A stretch of DNA of 64,000 nucleotides from Nematopogon swammerdamellus (Eukaryota; Arthropoda; Insecta; Lepidoptera; Adelidae), in the NCBI GenBank assembly GCA_946902875.1, contig OX336345.1, positions 9,021,395-9,085,394 of the forward strand. Direction: 5' to 3'. Every line of letters starts with the position of its first letter. The first letter of the stretch is position 1. Both the position numbers and the translations under genes were made by a program. The notes under the pieces are model-generated. The model ran no database searches, was not told where the DNA came from, and was given only the letters and a program-made list of their open reading frames with translations. Shown here piece by piece: positions 662 through 62,734 of this stretch.

Positions 662-1921
662 AATCAAAAATCAAAATCAAAATCATTTATTCAGTGATAT
701 CATAAAAATTAACATAGTGTAAGTATATAATTTTTGTTTCTTTTCACTTCGTCATATTAATACTTCTATAAAAAATTTGAATTGATAATTCAATAAAATT
801 AAAATTAAACATTAAAAACAATATAAAAAATTAAAAAGTCATTAGGTTAAATTAAACATTAAAAGCAATATAAAAATTAAATAAATTAGGTATTAAAAAC
901 ATTATTATTATCATTTCTGCTATTTTGTCTTATATATCTAACTTAAAATATGTCATGTCATAAAACGTTTTATTTAAGAGCCATTTATGGAGTTTCTTTT
1001 TAAAAGTGACTTCGCTCTCCTCTCTTTGCAGTTCAAGGGGCAGTTTGTTATAAATGCTAGCCGCCTTGAATTTTAAGCTTTTTTGGAATTTCGTGGTGCT
1101 GTGGCTTGGCATTTGAAGTAGTTGCTTGTGCCTGGTGGTGTAGGTGTGTGTGCGTGCGTTATATTCTGAGCCGTTACACCTCGCAAACAGCGCGACTTTC
1201 TTCACATAAGCATCGTACATCGTTAGCATCTTTAGCTTTTTAAATATTGGTGTGCAGTGGTCGTCCCACGCTGATTTGTTTATTATTCGTACTGCACGTT
1301 TTTGCAGTACGAATATGTTGTGGGCGTCGCCTGCTACTCCCCAGAATTCCAACCCGAATATCATTGTGGAGTAGAAATAGCCGTAATATGCGTTTATCAT
1401 TGTTTTTATGTCACATGATTGGGCCAGAATTCTGAGACAGTAGCATGCTTTGCTCAATTTGGCACAAACACTGTCGATGTGGTCCGAGTACCTGAGGTTA
1501 TTGTCGAGCGTAAGACCTAGGAATTTATGGGAGTTTTGGAACTTGATGACATCGCCGAAATGTCGAACACACATATTATTTCCTAAATCTTCTCTATTGA
1601 TTATCGTGAAATGCACACATCCTGTTTTTGATTTATTCATCAGTAGCTTGTTTGCTGTGAACCAGTCGAATAAAGCTATTAAGCAGTATTCTAACTTGTT
1701 TAGCAATTCAGTTTGATCTTTTGCTTTAACAATTGCATTGGCATCGTCTGCGTACAATATTAGTAATGCGCATTTTATTGCATTCGGTAAATCATTAATG
1801 AAAAGTAAGAATAGTAGTGTCGACAATATGGAACCTTGTGGAACGCCGTATGTTATTTTAAAGGGTGCCGAGATTGAATCCGACAGTTCGAGGTCATGCA
1901 TGCTTTTTACTGATACTATGC
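661..1921 (-). mobile_element. 5'-truncated LINE inserted in the 256-bp repeat
   Basis: The 3' end lies at the left, with a TTTTGAT-type short-repeat tail (ATCAAAA on the plus strand, 661-690). A 3' UTR follows, then RT-coding sequence up to about 1921. The host repeat is interrupted exactly at the LINE boundaries. No long target-site duplication is visible, at most a few bases. Confidence 0.85.
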
Positions 1922-1949
1922 CTATGTCCTTCCTCAGGATCCAATTCAT
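930..1949 (-). CDS. LINE reverse transcriptase, C-terminal part
   Basis: Open frame of 339 codons carrying the central and C-terminal half of a non-LTR reverse transcriptase. Near the start is YGVPQGSIL (fingers/palm), then the catalytic YADD box near residue 67, then FLGLTLDNNLRYSDHI and a thumb/C-terminal region ending in KKLHKWLL. This is a Jockey/CR1-type layout; the exact clade cannot be fixed by eye. The N-terminal endonuclease and early RT motifs are missing, so the copy is 5'-truncated. The first ten or so residues come from the flanking repeat, so the apparent start codon is not the element's own. The frame is open to its stop, which suggests a fairly young insertion. Confidence 0.8.
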   Translation of the reverse strand: MNWILRKDIGIVSVKSMHDLELSDSISAPFKITYGVPQGSILSTLLFLLFINDLPNAIKCALLILYADDANAIVKAKDQTELLNKLEYCLIALFDWFTANKLLMNKSKTGCVHFTIINREDLGNNMCVRHFGDVIKFQNSHKFLGLTLDNNLRYSDHIDSVCAKLSKACYCLRILAQSCDIKTMINAYYGYFYSTMIFGLEFWGVAGDAHNIFVLQKRAVRIINKSAWDDHCTPIFKKLKMLTMYDAYVKKVALFARCNGSEYNARTHTYTTRHKQLLQMPSHSTTKFQKSLKFKAASIYNKLPLELQREESEVTFKKKLHKWLLNKTFYDMTYFKLDI

Positions 1950-2075
1950 CTCCGTGCAATATCTTATCGAAATCCGTTCAGCGGTTTAGGCGTGAAAAGG
2001 TAACAGACAGACAGACAGACAGACAGACAACACAGTTACTTTCGAATTTATAATATTAGTATGGATAGTATGGAT
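1922..2075 (+). repeat. 256-bp repeat, copy 2, right part with (CAGA)n tail
   Basis: Resumes at GCCTATGTCCTTCCTCAGG and ends with ATCCGTTCAGCGGTTTAGG, a CAGA run (2006-2030) and ATAATATTAGTATGGAT. This tail is common in lepidopteran interspersed repeats. Confidence 0.75.
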
Positions 2076-13516: not shown

Positions 13517-15121
13517 CTATTTCATTTGGCGTAGTGTGCTCCTCTTACTGCTTTTATTGCTTTTTATTGCTGCAGTAATTTCTTTTTTAAACATCGATCT
13601 GGACACGTTAAATATGTCTGTCTCATTGAATAAGCAGTTGAAATTATGAACGACTCTGCAAAAGACAGAGTTTTGTGTGTAATTAGTGCGGTGCGCGGGC
13701 TCGTGAAAAAGAGTAGTGTGGCGCGTGCGGCGGCGCGGCACGTTTAGCCCCACCTCCGCCAGCAGCTCCGCGCTGTCCAGGCGCCCGCGCATCACATCAA
13801 ACAGGAATGTTGCATCAGTCAGGAGTCTCCTCTCTTCCAACGTCAACAGGTTGAAGTGTCTGCAACTAGTGACATAATCCGTAAATGAAGTTTTACTGAT
13901 GTAATTGATGTGTTTTATAAATAAAGATTGTATGCGTTCAATTCTTTTGTTGTGTACATCGTACCTTGGACACCAAATACTGCTGGCATATTCAAGCGTG
14001 CTGCGAACGTATGCGCAGTAAACAGTTTTTAGGCACGCTGCACTTCCCAACGGCTTACATGTTCTAAGAACAAAACCAAGATTTTTGAAGGCTTTGTTAG
14101 TGATGCTTTCCACATGACCAGAAAAAGTCAGTTTACTATCTAAGTATATTCCTAAATCGCGGATGGTATTAGTTCTAGTAATATTTGAGTTTTGTATTGA
14201 GTATGTAAATAATATCATATTTTTGCGTCTAGTAAAACTGATAATTTGACATTTGGAGGCGTTTACTGATATTCTGTTTTGTGTGTAATATCGAGATAAT
14301 GCGTTCAGGTCGCTCTGTAGCATTTCACAGTCCGAAGTATTATTGATCTTGAGGGCAATCTTCTTGTCATCAGCGTACATCCAGTGTTTGGTGTTTTTTA
14401 GACAATGAAATATATCATATAGGAAGGATATGTAAAATAACGGCCCTAAGTGGGATCCTTGTGGGACCCCGGAGGGGATTTCGATCACCTTGGAGTGATA
14501 ACCACCTATTGCCACCAGTTGGGAGCGCCGAGTCAGGTAAGATTTGATCCACCTCAGTAAATCGCCCTGTATTCCCAGCCAGCTCAGTTTGGCAAGCAGG
14601 ATGATATGATCCACCCGATCAAAAGCTTTCTCAAAATCGGTGTAGATCACATCAACCTGCCCGCCGTTCTCCATATTATTCAACACAAAATTTGTGAAGG
14701 AAGATAAGTTGGTGACTGTGGAGCGTCCCTTTAGAAATCCGTGTTGTGAATCCGGAATACAGCGTGAGATATGGGGATAGATGTGTGCATATACGACCTT
14801 TTCAAATATTTTGCTAAACGAGTTCAAAATAGATATTGGGCGGTAATTTTCAATCTTTATTTTGGATCCTTTCTTATGTATGGGAATTATATTAGCCATT
14901 TTCCAAGTTGTCGGGAATATGCCTTCCTGCAATGAGCGTCTAAAGATGATAAGGAGTGGCTGTACTAGAGAATAGGCACAAGACTTGATAAAAAATGAGG
15001 GTATGTTGTCATTGCCGGCCCCCTTCGCTGAGTCCAGGTTGCGCAAGAGGCTAAGTAGCATGTCGGGAGTGACTTCCGGAATCCTAATTGTGGCGGGATC
15101 TCCGTTTTGTGGGGCGGACAA
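13517..15121 (-). CDS. LINE reverse transcriptase (534 codons)
   Basis: Non-LTR retrotransposon RT that would prime on nicked genomic DNA to copy its own RNA. Motifs in order: LRNLDSAKGAGNDNIPSFF (about residue 27), WKMANIIPIHKKGSK and NYRPISIL (RT 1-2), DSQHGFLKGRST, DFEKAFDRVDH (motif A, catalytic Asp), IPSGVPQGSHLGP (motif B), MYADDKKIA (motif C), then RDLGIYLDSKLTFSGHV and LEYASSIWCP (thumb and post-RT). All catalytic motifs look intact. The 5' start is not real: it begins at a TTG beside a frameshift, because the preceding linker continues in another frame from about 15130. Jockey/CR1-like; clade uncertain. Confidence 0.85.
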   Translation of the reverse strand: MSAPQNGDPATIRIPEVTPDMLLSLLRNLDSAKGAGNDNIPSFFIKSCAYSLVQPLLIIFRRSLQEGIFPTTWKMANIIPIHKKGSKIKIENYRPISILNSFSKIFEKVVYAHIYPHISRCIPDSQHGFLKGRSTVTNLSSFTNFVLNNMENGGQVDVIYTDFEKAFDRVDHIILLAKLSWLGIQGDLLRWIKSYLTRRSQLVAIGGYHSKVIEIPSGVPQGSHLGPLFYISFLYDIFHCLKNTKHWMYADDKKIALKINNTSDCEMLQSDLNALSRYYTQNRISVNASKCQIISFTRRKNMILFTYSIQNSNITRTNTIRDLGIYLDSKLTFSGHVESITNKAFKNLGFVLRTCKPLGSAACLKTVYCAYVRSTLEYASSIWCPRYDVHNKRIERIQSLFIKHINYISKTSFTDYVTSCRHFNLLTLEERRLLTDATFLFDVMRGRLDSAELLAEVGLNVPRRRTRHTTLFHEPAHRTNYTQNSVFCRVVHNFNCLFNETDIFNVSRSMFKKEITAAIKSNKSSKRSTLRQMK

Positions 15122-15352
15122 GTTTAGAGTAATACGCTCTCGAAAAACCCAGAAAAACCGTTACATATATCATTTCCGGTAGATAGTGTTTCGTTCCCGC
15201 ATGTCATTATTTTAGGGTAGGCAGAGCCGCCGCGTTTCGATTTGACATATGTCCAAAATGCTTTTGGATGTGATTTAATTGAGTTGGCTACATTGGTTTT
15301 ATTGCGCTTATCACATTCCTTTTGAACTCGGTGTTGTCGATTTAAATTTTTG
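15122..15352 (-). pseudogene. endonuclease-RT linker of the same LINE, frameshifted
   Basis: Minus-strand translation gives HPKAFWTYVKSKRGGSAYPK followed by NDICNGFSGFFESV, a linker typical of LINEs of this type. It hits a stop just before the RT frame, so a one-base change near 15130-15160 separates the two parts. The copy ends at about 15365, where the 5' truncation lies. Confidence 0.7.
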
Positions 15353-16015: not shown

Positions 16016-16245
16016 TATTGTATTATTTATTGATCATTCATATGGCAGTTAGACTGCACTCGAACTTGTCACTATTTGTTCTATCCGGTTCGATTACACC
16101 ACAGAGCATCGAATACCGCGCGCGTGGTATTCTATGCTCTGTGGATTACACGCACGAAGAAGAACCGACAAGAAACTTCGAAGGTTATTATTTTTTTAAT
16201 ACATATTTTTACAAGTATTTAGTGACTAGCCACATAATAACATCG
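16016..16245 (+). repeat. dispersed repeat D, copy 1 (interrupted)
   Basis: Shares TTTATTGATCATTCATATG, TTAGACTGCACTCGAACTTG and GTGACTAGCCACATAATAAC, in the same order, with 62308-62468. A 44-bp palindromic insertion is present here but not in the other copy. Confidence 0.8.
16100..16143. mobile_element. 44-bp palindromic miniature element, hAT-like, with 8-bp TSD
   Basis: CACAGAGCATCGAATACC (16100-16117) pairs with GGTATTCTATGCTCTGTG (16126-16143) with one mismatch around an 8-base GCGCGCGT loop. It is flanked by an exact 8-bp duplication, GATTACAC (16092-16099 and 16144-16151). The homologous repeat at 62308 lacks both the palindrome and the duplication. An 8-bp duplication is characteristic of hAT transposition. 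Confidence 0.8.
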
Positions 16246-17140
16246 CCCATAGTGTGCAATGCACGACGATGCCTTTTCTGGGTATTCCATGCAGCCGGGC
16301 GACTCGCTCGCCCTGTGCCCGGGCATAAAGTGTCCTTTACTACTTGGCACTGAGGGAGCACCGTGCCGCGTCGTGTCGCCAGTAAACAGAGTTTATAGAA
16401 CCTCTGATAGCGCCATTGCTGTACACTGCCTGCACGGACGTATTTACTTAATGCCGGTCCTTCATATTCGCACGAATACGCGAGCCCGCATGTGTAGGAC
16501 GACACTCGCGAATGCACTCGCGAAGTTTTTACCACATTCGTGCCTTTCCGAACTGTGTCGGTTTTTTGACGCACATCAAAGAGCACGAGCCTCAAATATT
16601 CGCGTAGTCTCCGACACATTCGTGCATGGTCAGTTGCGCGCACGACTGCGAAGGTGGCGCACGTGTCGGCAGTTGGGAGTAAACAACAACAATATGGATT
16701 GGAGTAGCAACAACGTGTTGGAGTTAATTATATAAACACGGGTAAAAAAGCCCAACCGCGTTAATAAACTCATCGTCCATGGCAGCGTCTCTGGTCGACA
16801 AAATCTACAACACTGTGAATTTCGTTAAGCGTAAATGGGTTTACAAAATATGCCCTCGCGAGTACACTCGCGAATGCTGTATTTGCGAGTGAGTATGCGA
16901 ACTTTTTGACGGCCCCTCACAACCGAACAATTGGAACAATGTGCAAACATTCGAACAATCTACGAATGTTTGCGCGCATGTGTGGGAGAAGGGTAAGAGC
17001 AGACTGAAGTTAGTCACGTGATAATATGTTAGGTATTTGATCAAAGTATCGCTGTCTCCGTTAGCCACGCGCACTCCCCGCCAACGCAAGATGAACAGCT
17101 GCACGCTCTCAGCTAATTACCTACAAATGTTAAATTACAA
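16246..17140. other. CpG-rich stretch with repeated CTCGCGAATGC motifs
   Basis: No intact gene. CACTCGCGAATGC occurs at 16503 and again at 16868. A short hairpin, CAAACATTCG/CGAATGTTTG, lies near 16944-16972. Overlapping frames on both strands lack family motifs apart from the MADF-like start below. Confidence 0.4.
16694..16734 (+). pseudogene. possible MADF-domain N-terminus remnant
   Basis: ATG at 16694 encodes MDWSSNNVLELII then stops. The W....VLELI pattern resembles the start of MADF domains, found in PIF/Harbinger accessory proteins and transcription factors. Too short to be sure. Confidence 0.2.
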
Positions 17141-47705: not shown

Positions 47706-48118
47706 GATAAGCGGTGGGTGGCCGAGTGGTTTGGGCATCGGCTTCTCATGCGAGAGGTCCGCGGTTCGAATCCCGTTGGCATGTACCAATGAGTTTTTTC
47801 TGACGAAAAAAATTATGTACATACCTACACCTGCTGCTTCACCTTTCGGAACCGGTGTAAAACTGTAGGTCCCTTCCCTTGCCCCATACTAGGTGGTAGG
47901 CTCAAATTGTAGCCGACTGGGTTGGTACCACCGTACTGGATGTAATATGGCCGCATAGCAGCCTCGGTTGTGTTCTCCTCTAGTCCAGTATAGCCAGCAA
48001 TCCAGGGAAGTCTCCGGTATGGCACCTACCTTCTCGGAGGTTATATTGGCTGCTGGTCGGAGCATGCGCTTCGGCCCCTCCAACTCACATACCAGCACAC
48101 ACACCAGATTACATAAAA
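47706..48118 (+). mobile_element. SINE family A, complete copy nested in LINE L1x
   Basis: Head GGTGGGTGGCCGAGTGG and GGTTCGAATCCCG, the body to GAGCATGCGCTTCGGCCCC, and an A-rich tail to about 48140. The LINE coding frame stops at its left edge and resumes after the tail. Confidence 0.85.
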
Positions 48119-52695: not shown

Positions 52696-52700
52696 CATAT

Positions 52701-53815
52701 TGTTGGCGACAGACACAATAATATTAAGAAAACTGCGAAATTAATAAATAAGGCTAGAACTATAGTTTCAGATTCATATTATCGGTAAAGACCTGGGCCC
52801 AGGTAATTCATATAGGTAGGTAGAAAAATAGAGTAAGTTAGAATGTAAATTATAGGAAATATATGTTAGTCTGCCAATCAAAGTTGAAACTGGGGTCAGG
52901 ATACAGGTACCTACCGCACACACGATGACGAGAGTATAAACATATAGAGCATTGTATCCCAAAATAGATTTGTTATGAAGAAACACTAAGTCAAGGTTAA
53001 GGACCGCTCGACTAGGAGACGCGAGCTGCGATGGAACAATGGGGTTCATTATTGGCGGGTGCGAGGTCATACGCGTGGTGACGACTCTCGCGCCGGCCCG
53101 GACGCATACTGTAAACATTAGCTGCCCCAGAGACGAACATAGTTTAATTAGGCAGTCCCATTCAGACAGCTCCTCAGAACGGACCGACGACGGTAGAGAA
53201 GCTCTCGAACTCACGAAACGTACATGACAGTGACGCTCCAGTGAAAATAATGATTAAAATAGAACCGAGAATAGAACCAAGTAAAACATAGTGACAGTTA
53301 TGTGCAGACAACCGGAAACGACGTTAAAACATACTCGTGATACCTATCGTGAATTGGTAGTGACACCGAACTATTTATAGTGACAACTAGTGACAAGTGA
53401 CAACTCAAGCGAATACTTGTTACCTGGCCTTGGGACTAAGATTGGTGGCGGGGCAACCCGTATGCTAGTTTCATTTGTCTCCACAAACTTCCCCAAACAT
53501 GATTAGTTTGAGAACAAAGAACAGTGCTTAATAAATAATACATAAATAGTAAAACAGTAACAAGTTATTTGGTTTAAAGAACCATTGTCAAGTGGACGCG
53601 TGCACAGGAGACGATTGACACTCCCACGATGAACAGTCGAACTGTAGATTGAGTCACGGTTTCGCCGGAGGAGACCGAACCGGCAAAGGGTGAATGCTGA
53701 CAGCGAATAGGCGAACCTTTATAAGTGTGAACTCTGGCGAATAGGTGAACTTATAAATGGGTGAACTTTTGTCAGTAAGTAAATGAAATGAATCCTTGAA
53801 CAGTGCTTTTTAACA
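52701..53815 (+). repeat. 5' LTR (1,115 bp)
   Basis: Starts TGTTGGCGACAGACACAATA and ends CAGTGCTTTTTAACA. It contains a perfect 14-bp palindrome, ACCTGGGCCCAGGT (52790), and an AATAAA near 53531 that may serve as a polyadenylation signal. The 146-codon minus-strand frame 52774-53214 is repeated in the other LTR and is not a gene. Confidence 0.95.
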
Positions 53816-53816
53816 G

Positions 53817-53834
53817 TGGTCCTTCGAGCCGGAT
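53817..53834 (+). promoter_or_regulatory. primer-binding site
   Basis: TGGTCCTTCGAGCCGGAT begins one base after the LTR. Its complement, ending CGAAGGACCA, fits the acceptor and T-arm end of an animal tRNA-Tyr as I remember it. Confidence 0.75.
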
Positions 53835-53919
53835 CCGCGATGCCGTGGACTCGATTCGGCAGTGAAAAATAGCCGCGATGCATAGTACAGTGACGGAGTC
53901 CGAAGCTTGCCTGCGCGCG

Positions 53920-54930
53920 CGCTTACCTGTGTGTCCGTGTACATCCGAGTGCCCGCGTCGCCGCGCCCGCACCGCCGCGGTTGCGCCCACGTGCGCGCGC
54001 TGCTGTACCAGCGACGCCAAAGTCGAGCCGCCGCCCCTGCGCGCCCTCACACACCCGCGTGCCCGCATTTGTGCCGCCCGCGTGCGCGCCCCTCTGTACC
54101 TACGACACCAAAGCGGAGCCCTTGCGCCCGCGTGCGCGCGCTGCTGCACTTGCGTGCCCACATACACCTGAGTGCCCGCACACACTCGCGTGCCCGCGCC
54201 GTACCGCTGCGCTTGCGCCCGCGTGCACGCGCCTCTGTACGCACACGTCTGCGTGCCCACACACACCTGCGTGCCCGCGCCACCGATGCGCGCGCCGCCG
54301 CTGCGCCCGCGTGCCTGCGCCACAGCTGCGCCCGCACCACCGCTGCGCCCACGTGCGCGCGCCGCGCTGCACCTGCGTGCGCACGCCGCTGTACCTGTGC
54401 TACCAAAGCCGAGCAGCCACCCCTGCGCGACTGCACACACCCACGTGTTGGGGCCGAGGCGCTGCGCCCGCATGCGCGCACCGCTACACCTGCGTGCGCG
54501 CCGCTAAATCTGCGTGCCTGCACACATCTGCGCACCTGCACCTGCACGCCGCTACACCCACGTACGCCCGCCTCTGTACCTGCCCCCGCCAAAACCGAGC
54601 TGTTGCAACAAGCGTGCGCGCACCGCTGCCCCTGCGTGGCTGCGTAAGTAAACTCACGTATCTGCATACACCTGCCTGCGCGCGCCGCTATGCTTGCGCC
54701 CACATGCGCGTGACTCTTTCCCTGCGTGGCCGTACACACCCGCGCTACTACACACCGCTGTACTACACTCCAGAGTGCCCAAGCCAGTGTTGCCTGTGCT
54801 GCCAAACCCGAACTGATGCGCCCGGGTGCGAACGCCACTGCACCTGCGTGACCATACACACCTGTGTACCTGCACACACCAGTGAGCCTACACACTCCAG
54901 CGAGCCTACACACCCCCGGAGCTACGTGCA
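53920..54930 (+). repeat. GC-rich degenerate minisatellite inside the LTR element
   Basis: Repeated GCGCCCGCGTGCGCGC, TGCGTGCCCGCACACACC and CGCTGTACCTGCG-type phrases over about 1 kb. Frames of 246-327 codons are open on both strands and encode only Arg/Ala/Pro/Cys/Thr periodic sequence, so they are low-complexity by-products. Confidence 0.85.
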
Positions 54931-55074
54931 TAAATTGTATGTACTACGTACACCGACTCGCTGAAGCAAGAACATATTACTTCGAAATAGCTAAGAAGAA
55001 CTGGAACTTGTGGAACACCTTCCGTTGCCGAAGCACAATGCTGCCCGCGCTACCACTCTGCAGAAGTCGATCAT

Positions 55075-55580
55075 ATGTGACGGTGCGTCCAGAGCACATT
55101 CTGCTCGCATCCATAAGCGAGCGGGAGGCAGCGCCCCATCGTGTGAAGCGACCCCGTGTGCACGGTGTTGCAACGTATGGAACCGAAATTCACGTCAAGT
55201 TGAAAACCGTGAGTACCACCGTCACGTCGTCGTATCACAATGTAGCCGGCTCCTTCACGGCATGCAAATCAACCGTTATACATCGGCAAGCCCGGAGCAC
55301 ATCCTGTTTGCAGCTTTAAGGGAGTAGGAGGCTACGCCTCATCCATCGCATCGTACAGAACAACACGGGATGAACACTGATGTCATGTGCAGTTACTTTG
55401 CCAAGCACTATGGAGCGTCATAGACAGTGTCTCGCTGGACGCATTGTAATCCAGTCACACACACACAGCCCACACGAGATAATGTAAATCGGATGTTATG
55501 TGACGGCGCGCCCAGAGCGAATCCTGCTCGTACCCGTATGCGAGTAGGAGGCTGCGCCTCACCTGTCGCCTGTCGCCTTG
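55075..55580 (+). repeat. ~210-bp degenerate tandem repeat inside the LTR element
   Basis: GACGGTGCGTCCAGAGCACA...GCGGGAGGCAGCGCC at 55079 recurs in altered form near 55285 and 55500 (GTAGGAGGCT(A/G)CGCCTCA). Confidence 0.6.
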
Positions 55581-56520
55581 CGCGGAACGACACCGGAAGA
55601 GTTAAGTTTGAGTCAATTAATTTGTAGCAGCCTCCACATAGAAGTGCGATACAAGCGCCGCGAGGAGTACGCGCCTTACACTCGGTAGCACTGCTGTCGT
55701 CTCGAGCATGCATAAATTGGGGACTTACACTGAAAGACATTTCATTCTTTCACATATCGAATATGAAACCGAACTGGTGACCCTCGACAAGAGCAAATAT
55801 GTAAAACATATATAAAATTATACTTCACCTCAGAGCGAGTCAACAACATTAACTTGAGGTCCCGCATCCCAGCCTTTTGGCGCGAACATCTGCGGCTCTG
55901 ATTTGCTCAGTTCGAGGCCGCAGAAGCAAGGCGACGAAGTTAAATACATGTATCTACGCTAATCTACAACACGTCTAACATCTACAAGACATCTAACAAA
56001 ATCAGGACATCGGTATATCACCACCTATCACGAACAAATATGCACTGAAGAAAGAACTGACTCTTATCAGATTATGAGGAATCAGAGGAAAGACAGTTCC
56101 AGAAGTTAATTCAGAGAAATGGAACTCGGAGACCATCTCAGCTTCTTTGAAGGATGCGTGAGCTAGCGCAGTCCAAGGATTCGGCCACATACCTTGCTCA
56201 GCGCGTGAGATGCTCACACAGGAGATCCAGCTGGACGTCCTTTCACGACGTCATTTCAAACGTGAGCGGGCGCTACCGGAGCATATCTAGAGTATCTGTG
56301 CAAAGGTCGAGGTTCAGCCAGATTTTTTCGACCCATTGGAATGCCATAGCTTCGCATAGTGCGACCCGTGCCGCTACACGGAGGGGAGCCATCACGAGTC
56401 ACCAAAACTTCAACCGACAAGCGTCTTAAGCACCTCTGTGACAGAGTGGCACCACGCCACGTCTATAGGCTGATCAAACAAGACACATCCGTGATGCTTC
56501 ATAACAAGATCTGAACAAGA
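55581..56520. other. LTR element interior, unassigned
   Basis: No frame above 110 codons and no gag motif recognised. Confidence 0.5.
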
Positions 56521-56522
56521 TC

Positions 56523-56960
56523 CCCCACCTGAGCGAAACCTCTCTGCGGAACGCAGTGAGTTGGTGGGCAAAGAAGGTGGACCCTCCACTCACCCGAGCG
56601 CAACCTCATCACAACCGATTGCGATGAGGTGGTGGGCGGAGGCGTCCGAAGAAGGCCCACCCGAGCGAAAACTCGTCCCGCCGTAGTGCGGCGAGGTGGT
56701 GGGCGGAGTTTCTGAAGTGGATTCTCTCCTCACCCGAGCGAAACCTCATCCCGGCGTAGTGCGGCGAGGTGGTGGGCAGAGTTTTTAAAGAACGTTCACT
56801 TCCCCACCCGAGCGAAACCTCGTTCCGCCATGATGCGGCGAGGTGGTGGACACAGTTTCTGAAGAAGGAAGACTAAGATAAGGAAGACGAAGATTCAATA
56901 ATGAAGACTCTCGTCACACGAGCGAAGCCTCGTCTCCCTATAGTGCGAGGATATGATGGA
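56523..56960 (+). repeat. tandem hairpin modules 1-6 (candidate structured RNA)
   Basis: Six modules start near 56525, 56591, 56658, 56731, 56805 and 56914. Each has the pattern CACCCGAGCG(A/C)AA, an inner stem-loop, then GGTGGTGGGC. The outer stem pairs CCCACC with GGTGGG. Inner stems differ in sequence but keep pairing: CTGCG/CGCAG, CCTCATC/GATGAGG, CCGC/GCGG with CTCG/CGAG, and CCTCG/CGAGG. Module 6 is weaker. Two more modules lie at 58954 and 59087. Confidence 0.75.
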
Positions 56961-57420
56961 CACAAGCTTGAGAAGGAGGAGTCATTGCCCCCTGCCAAGC
57001 AGAATCTTGCGACATTCATCACACCGACGCATCGACCAGATTGACCCTGCTTCGGTCACTTGCGTGGGGAGATGTAGCAGACATATGAACCAGAGGAGTG
57101 TCAAGTCAAAGTCACCCGATGGTGACTCTTCGCGATGCCGAATAAAGGAAGCATACTTTATTACGCTGAAGGAAATCGCTGCCACTAACATAATTGGAAT
57201 AAAAGGCCCAAAATCAAGGCATGGCTTACCATAAATGAAGTAAAACATAAATATACAGAGCCATCCCGCTCATTGTGGCTGGCTGATTGTTGCTGAGAAA
57301 GAGACAAACAAAACTGAGGCGACAGGGTGAAGTGCCCCGTAGAGGCAGTGACGCTGAGCCCTTGAGACCATTCTGTGTGAAGGATGCAGGCTGACATTAT
57401 GTCGGCTCACGACAACTGGC
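56961..57420. other. LTR element interior, unassigned
   Basis: Only short frames, none with a recognisable domain. Confidence 0.45.
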
Positions 57421-57479
57421 CTATGAGAGTAGCCGAAATAAGGGTTCAGTGAACTCGAAGAAAAATGCCGCTGGAGTAA

Positions 57480-57720
57480 CTACACTGATTCTGCGCGATC
57501 GCCAATGCGGCCCTCGCTGTTTTCTATCACAGAACACCACCTTAGACGATTTAAGTCGGTTTGTGATGACAAAAAATGACATCGGGACGTTGAAAATGTT
57601 GCAGCGAACAATTGGCGTGACCAAGGTAACAAATGGCCACCGACATTCATAAACGAAGCACGAAATGAACCGTAATTCAATTGAATGGAGCATACATTCT
57701 GAATGTGGGAAGCCTTATTG
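57480..57720 (+). pseudogene. possible decayed BEL/Pao integrase remnant
   Basis: One plus-strand frame gives EHHLRRFKSVCDDKK, then HRDVENVAANNW, then FINEARNEP and later MWEALL, broken by several stops. The order recalls the BEL/Pao integrase core (FLAAFKRFxxRRG, HSDNGTNFVGANN, NEARNxxIxW, APHFGGLWEA). Similarity is judged from memory and is weak at each segment. The catalytic Asp is partly retained and Glu is not certain. No function can remain. Confidence 0.35.
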
Positions 57721-58945
57721 AGCATAATAAAGAGATATATTTTGTCTTCGGACTGACTGCGGCGCACGCACCAAACGATTTGAAATCTGCGGCTGAACGA
57801 GCGATAGACCAGCTGATCTATAGCGCACTCACCGCGTCAAGCTGACGATAAACTTCGACTTACACCAAGTCCCACTGAAAATTACATCGGGCAACCTGAA
57901 ACCGGCTCAACAACAGCGAATGATAGTTGAGGTCCATCATGCCAATACATATTGATGCCTTTCTTGGGTTTTGAGATCCATTTGGGAGTGATAGTGGAAC
58001 AAAGTTTGTGGAGAAATGTGTTCGCATAGAACGAGAGGCGTACCCGCGAATTCTACACGACATGGACTAGCTGCCACACTAACAAGAATTCGATGCCAAT
58101 TGCGTTGCCTACATTGCACCGGGTCCTGAGGTGACTACAGAATTATCAGAACAACTCGTACAGTAAAGCTGAGCCATCTGTGGGGTAGGTACTGTTGCAC
58201 ACGTACCACATGTCAATGCCACCTAAGACAGCATTTTGTATCCAGCAAAACCCAAGTAACCATTTCTACTACCAATGACGATCTGGATGACGCAAAGCTG
58301 GGAGACCAACGGCCTGCAACTCCAATAAATTATATTAGTAATGCTATTCAAATTCATTGAAGCTGGACTGGCATTGAATAACCTACGAGCAGCAACCATA
58401 TACTGGAGAAAGCCGAAACTGTTTTAGAACTGGACGCATTGCACCACTAAACCAGTCGTGGTACACGGCGTAGCGAATAGACGAAAACCTGAACACCCGT
58501 ATCAATGGCGATAGATATAGAAGAATTTACCGAATTGATCCTTGAGAGCGAACTTTGACACGACACATTGACAGATTTGTTCTGATGAGACTCAAAAGCG
58601 AGAGGAGTGGCCTACGAAAAACTCTTTCTACCACACGATCTACATTTCGAAACCGAGAAACGAGTTTGCTGTGCGAGCTGCTACACCGCACACCGTACTA
58701 TCGACACACGATGATCCTCCAATTTGGGCGTACTTGCACGCACTACAAGCGGTGACCTAGACACGTGTATGAGAGTGAGAGTGCCCAAGACTGAAGCAAT
58801 TTGAAGAAAAGGGTGCGCAACTCTAATACTGACGCCACTACATCACATTAAGAATCAGATAGACATGGAAGAAACAGCACTGCCCTTCCGCGTCTGATTG
58901 CGGCGGAGTGACGAAAGACAACCTGAGTAGTGGGACAAGCTCGGG
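57721..58945. other. LTR element interior, unassigned
   Basis: No frame above 100 codons and no recognised domain. Confidence 0.45.
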
Positions 58946-58947
58946 AT

Positions 58948-59140
58948 GATCCCTCACCCGAGCGCAACCTCACTGCAACGAGTGGTGGTGAGGTGGAAAC
59001 GGTGATGGCCGAAAGGGGGGAAATTCCCCACACTAGCATGCTAGAGCGAGATAGCCTAAACTAGCGAATAATGGTGACGTTACCTCCACCCGAGCGCAAC
59101 CTTGCCGCAACAGAGTGCGGTGAGGTGGTGGGGCGGAAGC
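58948..59140 (+). repeat. hairpin modules 7 and 8
   Basis: CACCCGAGCGCAA with inner stem CCTCAC/GTGAGG (58954), and CACCCGAGCGCAA with CCTTGCCGCA/TGCGGTGAGG (59087), the latter with GGTGGTGGGG after it. Same architecture as the modules at 56.5 kb. Confidence 0.75.
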
Positions 59141-60375
59141 GTCAGAGCCGCCACGAGGCAATCCTATTGAACCAGCTCACAGAAGCAATGAGACACGCTT
59201 AGCACCTTGACGAATTCGACGTGTTACGAAATTACGACTCGCTAGCCAAGCTGTGCCGACCGACACCGATATCTACACGAGGGTGGAAATTCCTGCACAC
59301 TCTACCTACATACGAGTACTAGAGTTGTCATCACGAGAAATATTGCACCATCTCGTGAATTTAAGTTACTGACGTACTATACTGCGATTGATACGTCGAG
59401 TTCGTATACGTTGAGCGCAGCCACTGCAAGAACTGTAAAGAACGACGACGAAGGCCGTGCCTACTGCTACCGGGTAATCTACCGAGCACCCGCTTAGCTC
59501 ACCACCAACCTTCCGTTCGACGCATTAACCGACAATGGCTGGAGTCTGCTCCATGGACATCGAATTGACATTGCATTGAAAAAGCAGTGGAGTCGACTCT
59601 CTTCGCATATCTGAGTTAGCCGCAAGCTTGGCCGCTGACTCTATGTTGGTCGCATTTCGACGGTTCAAAATCACAGCAACGACGCACATTGAATCTGAAC
59701 CGAAGAAAGTTGGAGACTACCCGCCGACTAGACTGGCTGGGCAAGCTGGCCATCCAGTGGAGCACCATCTCGCCGGCGCGCCAAGAATATATGGAATCGA
59801 AGTACGAATGGTCCGCCCAACAAAGACCATCTTCACCATGACACCTCACCGGAGAGACACTTAAGGAGCGAGCTCGCTACACTATTGCTAGAAGAGAATG
59901 ACGGTACCGTCTCGAGAACTGACATGCTGCGGCTAGTAATGCCGTTACACGAGCTGCTCACAGGCTAGATATTTCCGACGTCGTGATGGAACTATGCAGT
60001 TCCTCCGCATTACGCTGTGAGTAAATCGTTTCAATAAACGTTTAGGTTTTTCTTTGTTTTGAAGTTTGAACACATCAGCGATCTAATGCTGTCTACTGAT
60101 GGGCACAGATCACTACGATAGAAACCAATATCTTCTATCTTAACCTGCAGCACTGACGCCCGCCGGGCTATTGTTATTATTGGACTTTATGGTGGTCTAT
60201 TTTTTTTTAAAACAGAGCCTCGTCCAAATAAATGATATGTGTTCTATGATGACAGTATTATTGAACCAATGCATTTCTTTTCATGTCACTGCATCACCGA
60301 CCGAGACCTGGCCAACTGGAGAGGACAGACGGTGCGATGAGTCTGCCGCCCCAAAGTTTAAGTATGACCGAGGCA
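59141..60375. other. LTR element interior, unassigned
   Basis: Short frames only. ADSMLVAFRRFK at 59634 faintly recalls an integrase segment, but the rest does not follow. Confidence 0.4.
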
Positions 60376-60378
60376 TAC

Positions 60379-60389
60379 GGAGGGGAGAC
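60379..60389 (+). promoter_or_regulatory. polypurine tract
   Basis: GGAGGGGAGAC directly before the 3' LTR, in the expected place for plus-strand DNA priming. Confidence 0.8.
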
Positions 60390-61504
60390 TGTTGGCGACA
60401 GACACAATAATATTAAGAAAACTGCGAAATTAATAAATAAGGCTAGAACTATAGTTTCAGATTCATATTATCGGTAAAGACCTGGGCCCAGGTAATTCAT
60501 ATAGGTAGGTAGAAAAATAGAGTAAGTTAGAATGTAAATTATAGGAAATATATGTTAGTCTGCCAATCAAAGTTGAAACTGGGGTCAGGATACAGGTACC
60601 TACCGCACACACGATGACGAGAGTATAAACATATAGAGCATTGTATCCCAAAATAGATTTGTTATGAAGAAACACTAAGTCAAGGTTAAGGACCGCTCGA
60701 CTAGGAGACGCGAGCTGCGATGGAACAATGGGGTTCATTATTGGCGGGTGCGAGGTCATACGCGTGGTGACGACTCTCGCGCCGGCCCGGACGCATATTG
60801 TAAACATTAGCTGCCCCAGAGACGAACATAGTTTAATTAGGCAGTCCCATTCAGACAGCTCCTCAGAACGGACCGACGACGGTAGAGAAGCTCTCGAACT
60901 CACGAAACGTACATGACAGTGACGCTCCAGTGAAAATAATGATTAAAATAGAACCGAGAATAGAACCAAGTAAAACATAGTGACAGTTATGTGCAGACAA
61001 CCGGAAACGACGTTAAAACATACTCGTGATACCTATCGTGAATTGGTAGTGACACCGAACTATTTATAGTGACAACTAGTGACAAGTGACAACTCAAGCG
61101 AATACTTGTTACCTGGCCTTGGGACTAAGATTGGTGGCGGGGCAACCCGTATGCTAGTTTCATTTGTCTCCACAAACTTCCCCAAACATGATTAGTTTGA
61201 GAACAAAGAACAGTGCTTAATAAATAATACATAAATAGTAAAACAGTAACAAGTTATTTGGTTTAAAGAACCATTGTCAAGTGGACGCGTGCACAGGAGA
61301 CGATTGACACTCCCACGATGAACAGTCGAACTGTAGATTGAGTCACGGTTTCGCCGGAGGAGACCGAACCGGCAAAGGGTGAATGCTGACAGCGAATAGG
61401 CGAACCTTTATAAGTGTGAACTCTGGCGAATAGGTGAACTTATAAATGGGTGAACTTTTGTCAGTAAGTAAATGAAATGAATCCTTGAACAGTGCTTTTT
61501 AACA
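60390..61504 (+). repeat. 3' LTR (1,115 bp)
   Basis: Matches the 5' LTR along its whole length except for one C/T difference noticed at 60796. Followed by CATAT. Confidence 0.95.
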
Positions 61505-61639
61505 CATATAATACAATTGTATAATTGGCGTGTCTGTACTTTCAAGTTATTTGCCATTCAAATAACTTAGAATAATATAACCTATGAAGGATCTGTAATA
61601 GAACTGAGATCATTTTTCATATTTTTGTGTGCATGATAA

Positions 61640-61775
61640 ATATGTCCCTTCCCTTGCCCCTAGTAAGGTATGTTCAAATTGTAGCCGACTGGTTTGATAA
61701 CACTGTACTAGATGAAAACACCTCGGATGTGTTTTCCTCTAGTCCAGTACAACTAGCAATGTGAAGGTGCACCTA
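61640..61775 (+). mobile_element. SINE family A, left part (split by a LINE tail)
   Basis: TCCCTTCCCTTGCCCCTAGT, CAAATTGTAGCCGACTGG, CCTCTAGTCCAGTACAACTA. The head is missing. Interrupted at about 61776. Confidence 0.7.
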
Positions 61776-62307: not shown

Positions 62308-62468
62308 TGTTGTATTGTTTATTGATCATTCATATGACAGTTAGACTGCACTCGAACTTGTCACAATTTCTTATATCTGGTTCGATTACATTTACGATAG
62401 TATTTTGTTCATACTTACATATTATTACAAGTATTTTAGTGACTAGCCACATAATAACACGGCTCACA
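62308..62468 (+). repeat. dispersed repeat D, copy 2 (uninterrupted)
   Basis: Homologue of 16016-16245 that lacks the 44-bp palindrome. It keeps CTGGTTCGATTACATTTACG at the equivalent site. Confidence 0.75.
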
Positions 62469-62734
62469 GTCTATCGAAAACTATATTTTTCTAATATGTA
62501 CAAGAAAAATAGGTATAGGTATTTCTACTCCGCATTTGTACAAAGCAAACCTTCTCACTGTGCTACTTGCTCGTTCCTGAATTCAACTCGCAGAAGCCTG
62601 CTTACGTATAAAAGTTGGCAGTTGTTTCACTTCGTCCTATAACGTAACACATTTCAGTAGGCGCGCGTCCCACGTCACCAGCACGAAGTCTATTCCAAGT
62701 ACAACACAAACACTTGGCGGAAAGCTATGCGGAA
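62469..62734. other. unassigned sequence
   Basis: No recognised gene. Confidence 0.4.

What the first reader, a model, noticed from the sequence alone, without database searches (positions are those of the whole stretch)
52696..61509. Complete LTR retrotransposon with near-identical LTRs but no intact genes
LTRs of 1,115 bp, a CATAT target duplication, a primer-binding site and a polypurine tract are all in place, and I see one difference between the LTRs. The 6.57-kb interior encodes nothing of gag-pol size. A young insertion by a gene-less element means it was mobilised in trans. Large non-coding retrotransposon derivatives are known best from plants; an insect example with its cis signals visible is of interest.
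Basis: partly seen in the sequence, partly recalled or inferred. Interest (0 to 1): 0.88.

Follow-up and report, generated by a model that had tools for sequence, protein, structure and literature searches.

The report
Gene-less but still-spreading insect retrotransposon family
A retrotransposon in what looks like a moth or butterfly genome has lost its genes, yet many young copies show that it kept spreading, most likely by borrowing the enzymes of an intact relative that shares its end signals.

Summary
52701-53815 and 60390-61504 are LTRs differing at 1 of 1,115 bases inside a CATAT duplication. It is not an assembly duplication: the LTR-end/primer-site junction recurs exactly at 39 places in the 699-Mb genome. 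Of 15 full copies read, 14 have their own perfect 5-bp duplication and 9 have no LTR substitution; none has a frame above 391 codons. The window interior holds an eroded BEL/Pao integrase, recognisable at the same place in all 15 copies (12 at E<0.001): a BEL/Pao derivative that lost its genes. Copies differ from each other far more than their own LTR pairs do and are mosaics, so several gene-less lineages kept replicating and recombining. A coding BEL/Pao family in the same genome shares primer site, LTR end and 13 of 14 bases at the LTR start; it is the likeliest helper examined. Trans-mobilisation is well supported but inferred. An array of 8 hairpins with covarying stems may be a recognition signal; its function is unproven. 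Large gene-less LTR elements are known from plants (recalled) and Culex (PMC3286476): a new member of a known kind, unusually well resolved.

The parts
52696..52700 (.). target-site duplication CATAT, left copy
52701..53815 (+). 5' LTR, 1,115 bp, TGTT...AACA
53817..53834 (+). primer-binding site TGGTCCTTCGAGCCGGAT, complementary over 18 nt to the 3' end (CCA included) of tRNA genes of this genome read as tRNA-Tyr
53890..54960 (+). GC-rich, repetitive, hypervariable stretch; long frames on both strands but no frame constraint across copies
56526..56973 (+). array of six hairpins (motif starts 56526, 56591, 56658, 56731, 56805, 56915)
58955..59000 (+). seventh hairpin
59087..59132 (+). eighth hairpin
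59419..59514 (+). remnant of a BEL/Pao integrase zinc-finger region (H2C2)
59613..59855 (+). remnant of a BEL/Pao integrase core region
   Evidence: weak in 107
60379..60388 (+). polypurine tract
60390..61504 (+). 3' LTR, 1 difference from the 5' LTR
61505..61509 (.). target-site duplication CATAT, right copy

Best explanation
A large non-autonomous LTR retrotransposon derived from a BEL/Pao element. Shown: its genes are eroded, while LTRs, primer site and polypurine tract are intact; many young copies exist; copies are mosaics. Inferred: its RNA is made from the LTR, packaged in particles of an intact BEL/Pao family, primed by tRNA-Tyr, copied with template switching between co-packaged sister RNAs, and inserted by the helper's integrase, which recognises the shared LTR ends. 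The likeliest helper among those examined is the family read at C2:4209300-4216700 (about 0.55 on its own).
For: LTR pairs of 15 copies: 10 substitutions in all, 9 pairs with none, 14 perfect 5-bp duplications. Longest frame 256-391 codons in 15 of 15 interiors. BEL integrase remnant: best 4.7e-7, 28 hits under 0.01 against 2, 1, 0 and 1 in four controls; same place in 15 of 15 copies, 12 at E<0.001, three at 0.01-0.31, 0 reversed controls. Divergence between copies: 1-6% in LTR windows, mostly 2-9% in the interior. Mosaics. Helper family: BEL domains, LTR end plus primer site 25 of 26, LTR start 13 of 14, 20 junctions in the genome. tRNA match.
Against: No expression, particle or transposition data. 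The LTR-start match alone is marginal (score 31, maximum of 500 shuffles 30). Outside the ends no DNA similarity to the helper was found, and its LTR is about 2,290 bp, not 1,115 (inferred). No RT/A17 remnant was found. Only 40 of 128 LTR candidates and 27 of 44 interior candidates were scored, so a coding relative with similar LTRs could be unseen; the copies read were the best LTR matches.
Confidence: 0.83

Rival explanations
1. The family lost its genes only recently and was amplified by its own master copy with the same LTRs, still present but unseen.
For: 88 of 128 LTR candidates and 17 of 44 interior candidates were not scored.
Against: All 15 interiors share the same kind of eroded content while differing mostly by 2-9%, so the loss is older than the spread. 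The 39 exact junctions were not all read; the one long LTR pair, on C29, owes its length to inserts.
Confidence: 0.08
2. The helper is another BEL/Pao family, or an LTR element of another superfamily, not the one at C2:4209300.
For: 1146 A17 candidates, 150 scored, many with long open frames; two of 18 upstream regions examined have 18-19 of 19 bases of the primer site. Gypsy and Copia elements were not searched.
Against: Four other BEL families compared at both LTR ends share no more than TGTT at the LTR start, against 13 of 14 bases in the C2 family.
Confidence: 0.4
3. The GC-rich 5' stretch encodes a protein, so the element is not gene-less.
For: A 356-codon frame that only 1% of shuffles reach.
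Against: Long frames on both strands, shifting between copies, indels not in threes, no codon-phase bias; no Pfam retroelement match.
Confidence: 0.04
4. Copies spread as DNA duplications or by gene conversion, not by retrotransposition.
For: Mosaics could come from ectopic conversion; one copy (L023) lacks a duplication and has a truncated LTR end.
Against: 14 of 15 copies have perfect, different 5-bp duplications; L024, nearly identical to L023, is mosaic yet has identical LTRs and a perfect duplication.
Confidence: 0.02

Closest known systems
Culex quinquefasciatus cqUNK non-autonomous LTR elements (PMC3286476; passages, section 14)
   Same: No coding sequence, LTRs over 98% identical, sharp primer site and polypurine tract, target duplications, repeats between the LTRs; four of them have a Tyr primer site (cqUNK_13, 19, 33, 39); lengths overlap.
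   Different: They could not be tied to any superfamily or master copy; here a BEL/Pao remnant and a helper candidate are found. Repeats here are structured hairpins and a GC-rich stretch. Sequence was not compared.
LARDs of barley and relatives (Kalendar 2004; recalled, paper not held)
   Same: Large gene-less interior with LTR, primer site and polypurine tract; moved in trans.
   Different: Plant elements, recalled as of another superfamily with much longer LTRs.
TRIM of the ant Pogonomyrmex barbatus (PMC3532108; search listing and start of abstract only)
   Same: Gene-less insect LTR element.
   Different: Small; this one is 8.8 kb.
Achilles, a BEL element of the olive fruit fly (PMC4580426; passages)
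   Same: Tyr primer site after the LTR.
   Different: A coding BEL element with a 672-bp LTR.

Membership tests
Large gene-less non-autonomous LTR retrotransposon (LARD-like, in the wide sense) | LTRs, primer site, polypurine tract and target duplication in place | tested here: met
Large gene-less non-autonomous LTR retrotransposon (LARD-like, in the wide sense) | Long interior without coding capacity | tested here: met
   the GC-rich stretch has a frame longer than 99% of shuffles but no frame constraint
Large gene-less non-autonomous LTR retrotransposon (LARD-like, in the wide sense) | Several recent copies, hence mobilised in trans | tested here: met
   recent copies; the trans step itself is inferred
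BEL/Pao superfamily (as a derivative) | BEL/Pao pol sequence | tested here: met
   integrase remnant only; no RT/A17 remnant
BEL/Pao superfamily (as a derivative) | Primer site and 5-bp duplication as in BEL/Pao elements of this genome | tested here: met
   primer site; 5-bp duplication; duplications of the coding BEL elements were not tested
Autonomous BEL/Pao element | Intact gag-pol frame | tested here: not met
TRIM | Small size | tested here: not met
   element 8.8 kb, LTR 1,115 bp

The most novel reading that the evidence does not exclude
The repeated hairpin (constant CGAGCG bulge, variable stem, 7-10 units per element, sense strand only) is a cis signal that recruits a BEL/Pao Gag or dimerises RNAs, making this gene-less RNA a specialised, long-lived parasite whose lineages recombine inside helper particles: a packaging-signal array that evolved or was kept after the genes were lost.
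Probability: 0.2. Interest if true: 0.75.

Novelty: new member of a known kind. Interest (0 to 1): 0.5.

Why it matters
The gene-less LTR families reported in Culex could not be tied to a source of enzymes (PMC3286476). Here the superfamily, the cis signals, a helper candidate and a recombining set of gene-less lineages can be read from one genome, so what an RNA must carry to be copied by BEL/Pao machinery becomes testable.

Tried and rejected
Hidden coding: 116 pieces against Pfam and frame constraint, negative. Rfam on the window: 0 matches. The 13.7-kb LTR pair on C29 as coding partner: rejected, it holds two inserts, one with an antisense RT frame. Hairpin and primer-site patterns in viral contigs: 2 and 0 matches; the 2 lack the stem and look like chance. 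Hairpin motif in 24 fetched BEL stretches: 0 (parts of elements only). Extra conservation of hairpins between copies: not found. Constant part 8 of 52 variable sites, rest of hairpin 25 of 132, nearby interior 161 of 940; the first run used coordinates two bases off and was repeated; rows L020 and L023 were dropped in both as near-duplicates. GC-rich stretch against the last part of the helper frame: no match. tRNA patterns: no match; three sites, which are not tRNA genes; a corrected pattern worked. ARAGORN called the two genes Thr and Leu; I read the intron and anticodon loop as Tyr. Not seen: 88 of 128 LTR candidates, 17 of 44 interior candidates, 996 of 1146 A17 candidates, 20 of 120 primer-site places, 48 of 88 helper-LTR candidates. 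The LTR-start pattern did not complete.

Full report
What is there. A complete LTR retrotransposon lies at 52696-61509. Its LTRs differ at 1 of 1,115 positions and it sits in a CATAT duplication. A one-base spacer and the primer site follow the 5' LTR; a polypurine tract precedes the 3' LTR. In 55001-60389 the longest frame is below the shuffle median, and none of 116 frame pieces of 36 aa or more shows a retroelement domain in Pfam. The GC-rich stretch has a 356-codon frame that only 1% of shuffles reach, but no frame constraint across copies.

The genome. The window is on contig 13 of a 699-Mb assembly in 39 contigs. Of the named relatives of the RT frame at 13520-15160 in the best 120 hits, nearly all are Lepidoptera, with one beetle. 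The host is probably a moth or butterfly; this is inferred.

The family. An LTR search scored 40 of 128 candidates. From it I fetched 15 places with two LTRs at the expected spacing and five other stretches. In the 15, LTR pairs differ by 10 substitutions in all; 9 have none; 14 have perfect 5-bp duplications; L023 has a truncated LTR end and none. Interiors are 5,985-6,818 bp, with longest frames of 256-391 codons. The junction of LTR end and primer site occurs exactly at 39 places. L029 looks like a solo LTR. With a butterfly mutation rate near 3e-9 per site and generation (recalled), one LTR difference means about 150,000 generations, an order of magnitude only.

Long life without genes. 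Mean differences between copies are 1-6% in LTR windows, mostly 2-9% in the interior and 4-17% in the GC-rich stretch, against 10 substitutions in 15 LTR pairs. The interiors share the same eroded content, so the genes were most simply lost before these lineages parted. The integrase-core remnant is the most variable stretch listed (60 of 243 sites); the LTR (118 of 1,115) and the leader after it (7 of 74) are the least. This fits a dead remnant and maintained cis signals.

Mosaics. L011 and L023 have no substitution over 2,678 aligned sites (55887-58564) but 130 in the rest of the interior. In 7 of 7 pairs tested, picked from the 14 of 105 pairs that one search printed, the longest clean run was reached in 0 of 2000 permutations. 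L024 is nearly identical to L023, also mosaic, and has identical LTRs and a perfect duplication, so its mosaic most simply predates insertion. Template switching between co-packaged RNAs is the simplest reading; gene conversion is not excluded.

Origin. tblastn with 240 BEL proteins finds, on the plus strand and in order, an integrase zinc-finger remnant (59419-59514) and core remnant (59613-59855): best 4.7e-7; 28 hits under 0.01, against 2 in a reversed and 1, 0, 1 in three shuffled controls. 120 non-LTR RT proteins gave 1. A profile from 60 of 120 integrase fragments hits the same place in 15 of 15 copies: 12 at E<0.001, L022, L018 and L019 at 0.01, 0.043 and 0.31; 0 reversed controls. The RT/A17 profile hits none. 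Copies are related, so these are not independent.

Primer. 24 sites in the genome carry a tRNA 3' end complementary over 18 nt, CCA included, to the primer site. The 2 of 24 examined are tRNA genes by Rfam; the one printed has a CTGTAG anticodon loop followed by an intron, which I read as tRNA-Tyr. A Tyr primer site is on record for the BEL element Achilles (PMC4580426, passages).

Helper. 150 of 1146 A17 candidates were scored, many in frames over 1,700 codons. Of 18 upstream regions examined, 2 have 18 or 19 of 19 bases of the primer site. Four families compared at both LTR ends share no more than TGTT at the LTR start. The primer-site pattern gave 20 places with one and the same kind of mismatch. 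One was read (L055, L056): DUF1759, aspartic protease, A17 and integrase zinc finger above Pfam's cut-offs, RT and rve below them, in one frame running to a stop in the next stretch. It matches this element at LTR end plus primer site (25 of 26; score 47, maximum of 500 shuffles 28) and more weakly at polypurine tract plus LTR start (31 against 30). Its LTR is about 2,290 bp (inferred). Fourteen places are identical over 185 bp; by my pairing of positions 8 have LTR ends 9.1-9.4 kb apart and 6 only 6.1-7.1 kb, which suggests internally deleted versions (40 of 88 candidates scored).

Hairpins. The motif occurs 8 times in this element, all in sense, and nowhere else in the 64-kb window on either strand; 7-10 times per element in 15 copies, 128 in all, 0 antisense. 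In the 50 of 56 distinct units that could be registered, 91% of cells over 14 positions pair, against 32-49% with partners slid by 1 or 2; stem positions 5, 6 and 7 show changes on both sides, position 8 often fails to pair. The register was anchored on the 3' arm, which favours the true register, and units are repeats of one another. Single folds are mixed: 4 of 8 have z below -1.9, one is positive; the array folds at z -5.0, 0 of 100 shuffles as good. Hairpins are not clearly more conserved between copies than their surroundings. Function is open.

Known or new. Seven full-text searches of open-licence papers led to large gene-less LTR elements with repeats and no master copy in Culex (PMC3286476, section 14 read) and small ones in an ant (PMC3532108, listing). 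I saw no lepidopteran or BEL/Pao-assigned gene-less family in those listings. It is a new member of a known kind; the finer features (remnant, helper candidate, mosaics, hairpins) are what make it worth a look.

Noticed in passing
window 13520-15160 and 933-1985, minus strand: Reverse-transcriptase frames (RVT_1); the first resembles non-LTR elements of Lepidoptera.
   Followed up: partly
window 52774-53214, and 60463-60903, minus strand: A 146-aa frame antisense in both LTRs; the stop-to-stop length of 159 is reached by 2% of shuffles.
   Followed up: no
window 61641-61760 and 62310-62470: The right flank matches other parts of the window (75-76% at 47866 and 7720; 89-93% at 16018-16253), so the insertion lies among older repeats.
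   Followed up: no
L026 and L027 (C29:4212491-4226620): A copy of the family with two inserts, one holding an antisense RT frame of 727 aa.
   Followed up: partly
C34:17135371, C27:2433014, C19:6133207, C20:14731956, C14:8328492, C2:6001369: Helper-family places whose LTR ends are only 6.1-7.1 kb apart, perhaps internally deleted non-autonomous versions.
   Followed up: no
L057 121-161 (C23:2276520-2276560): An inverted primer-site-like sequence reaching into the tRNA T-arm and followed by CCA, outside a recognisable tRNA gene.
   Followed up: no
window 53752-53776: TATAAA followed by TCAGT near the LTR end, a possible core promoter (reading recalled).
   Followed up: no
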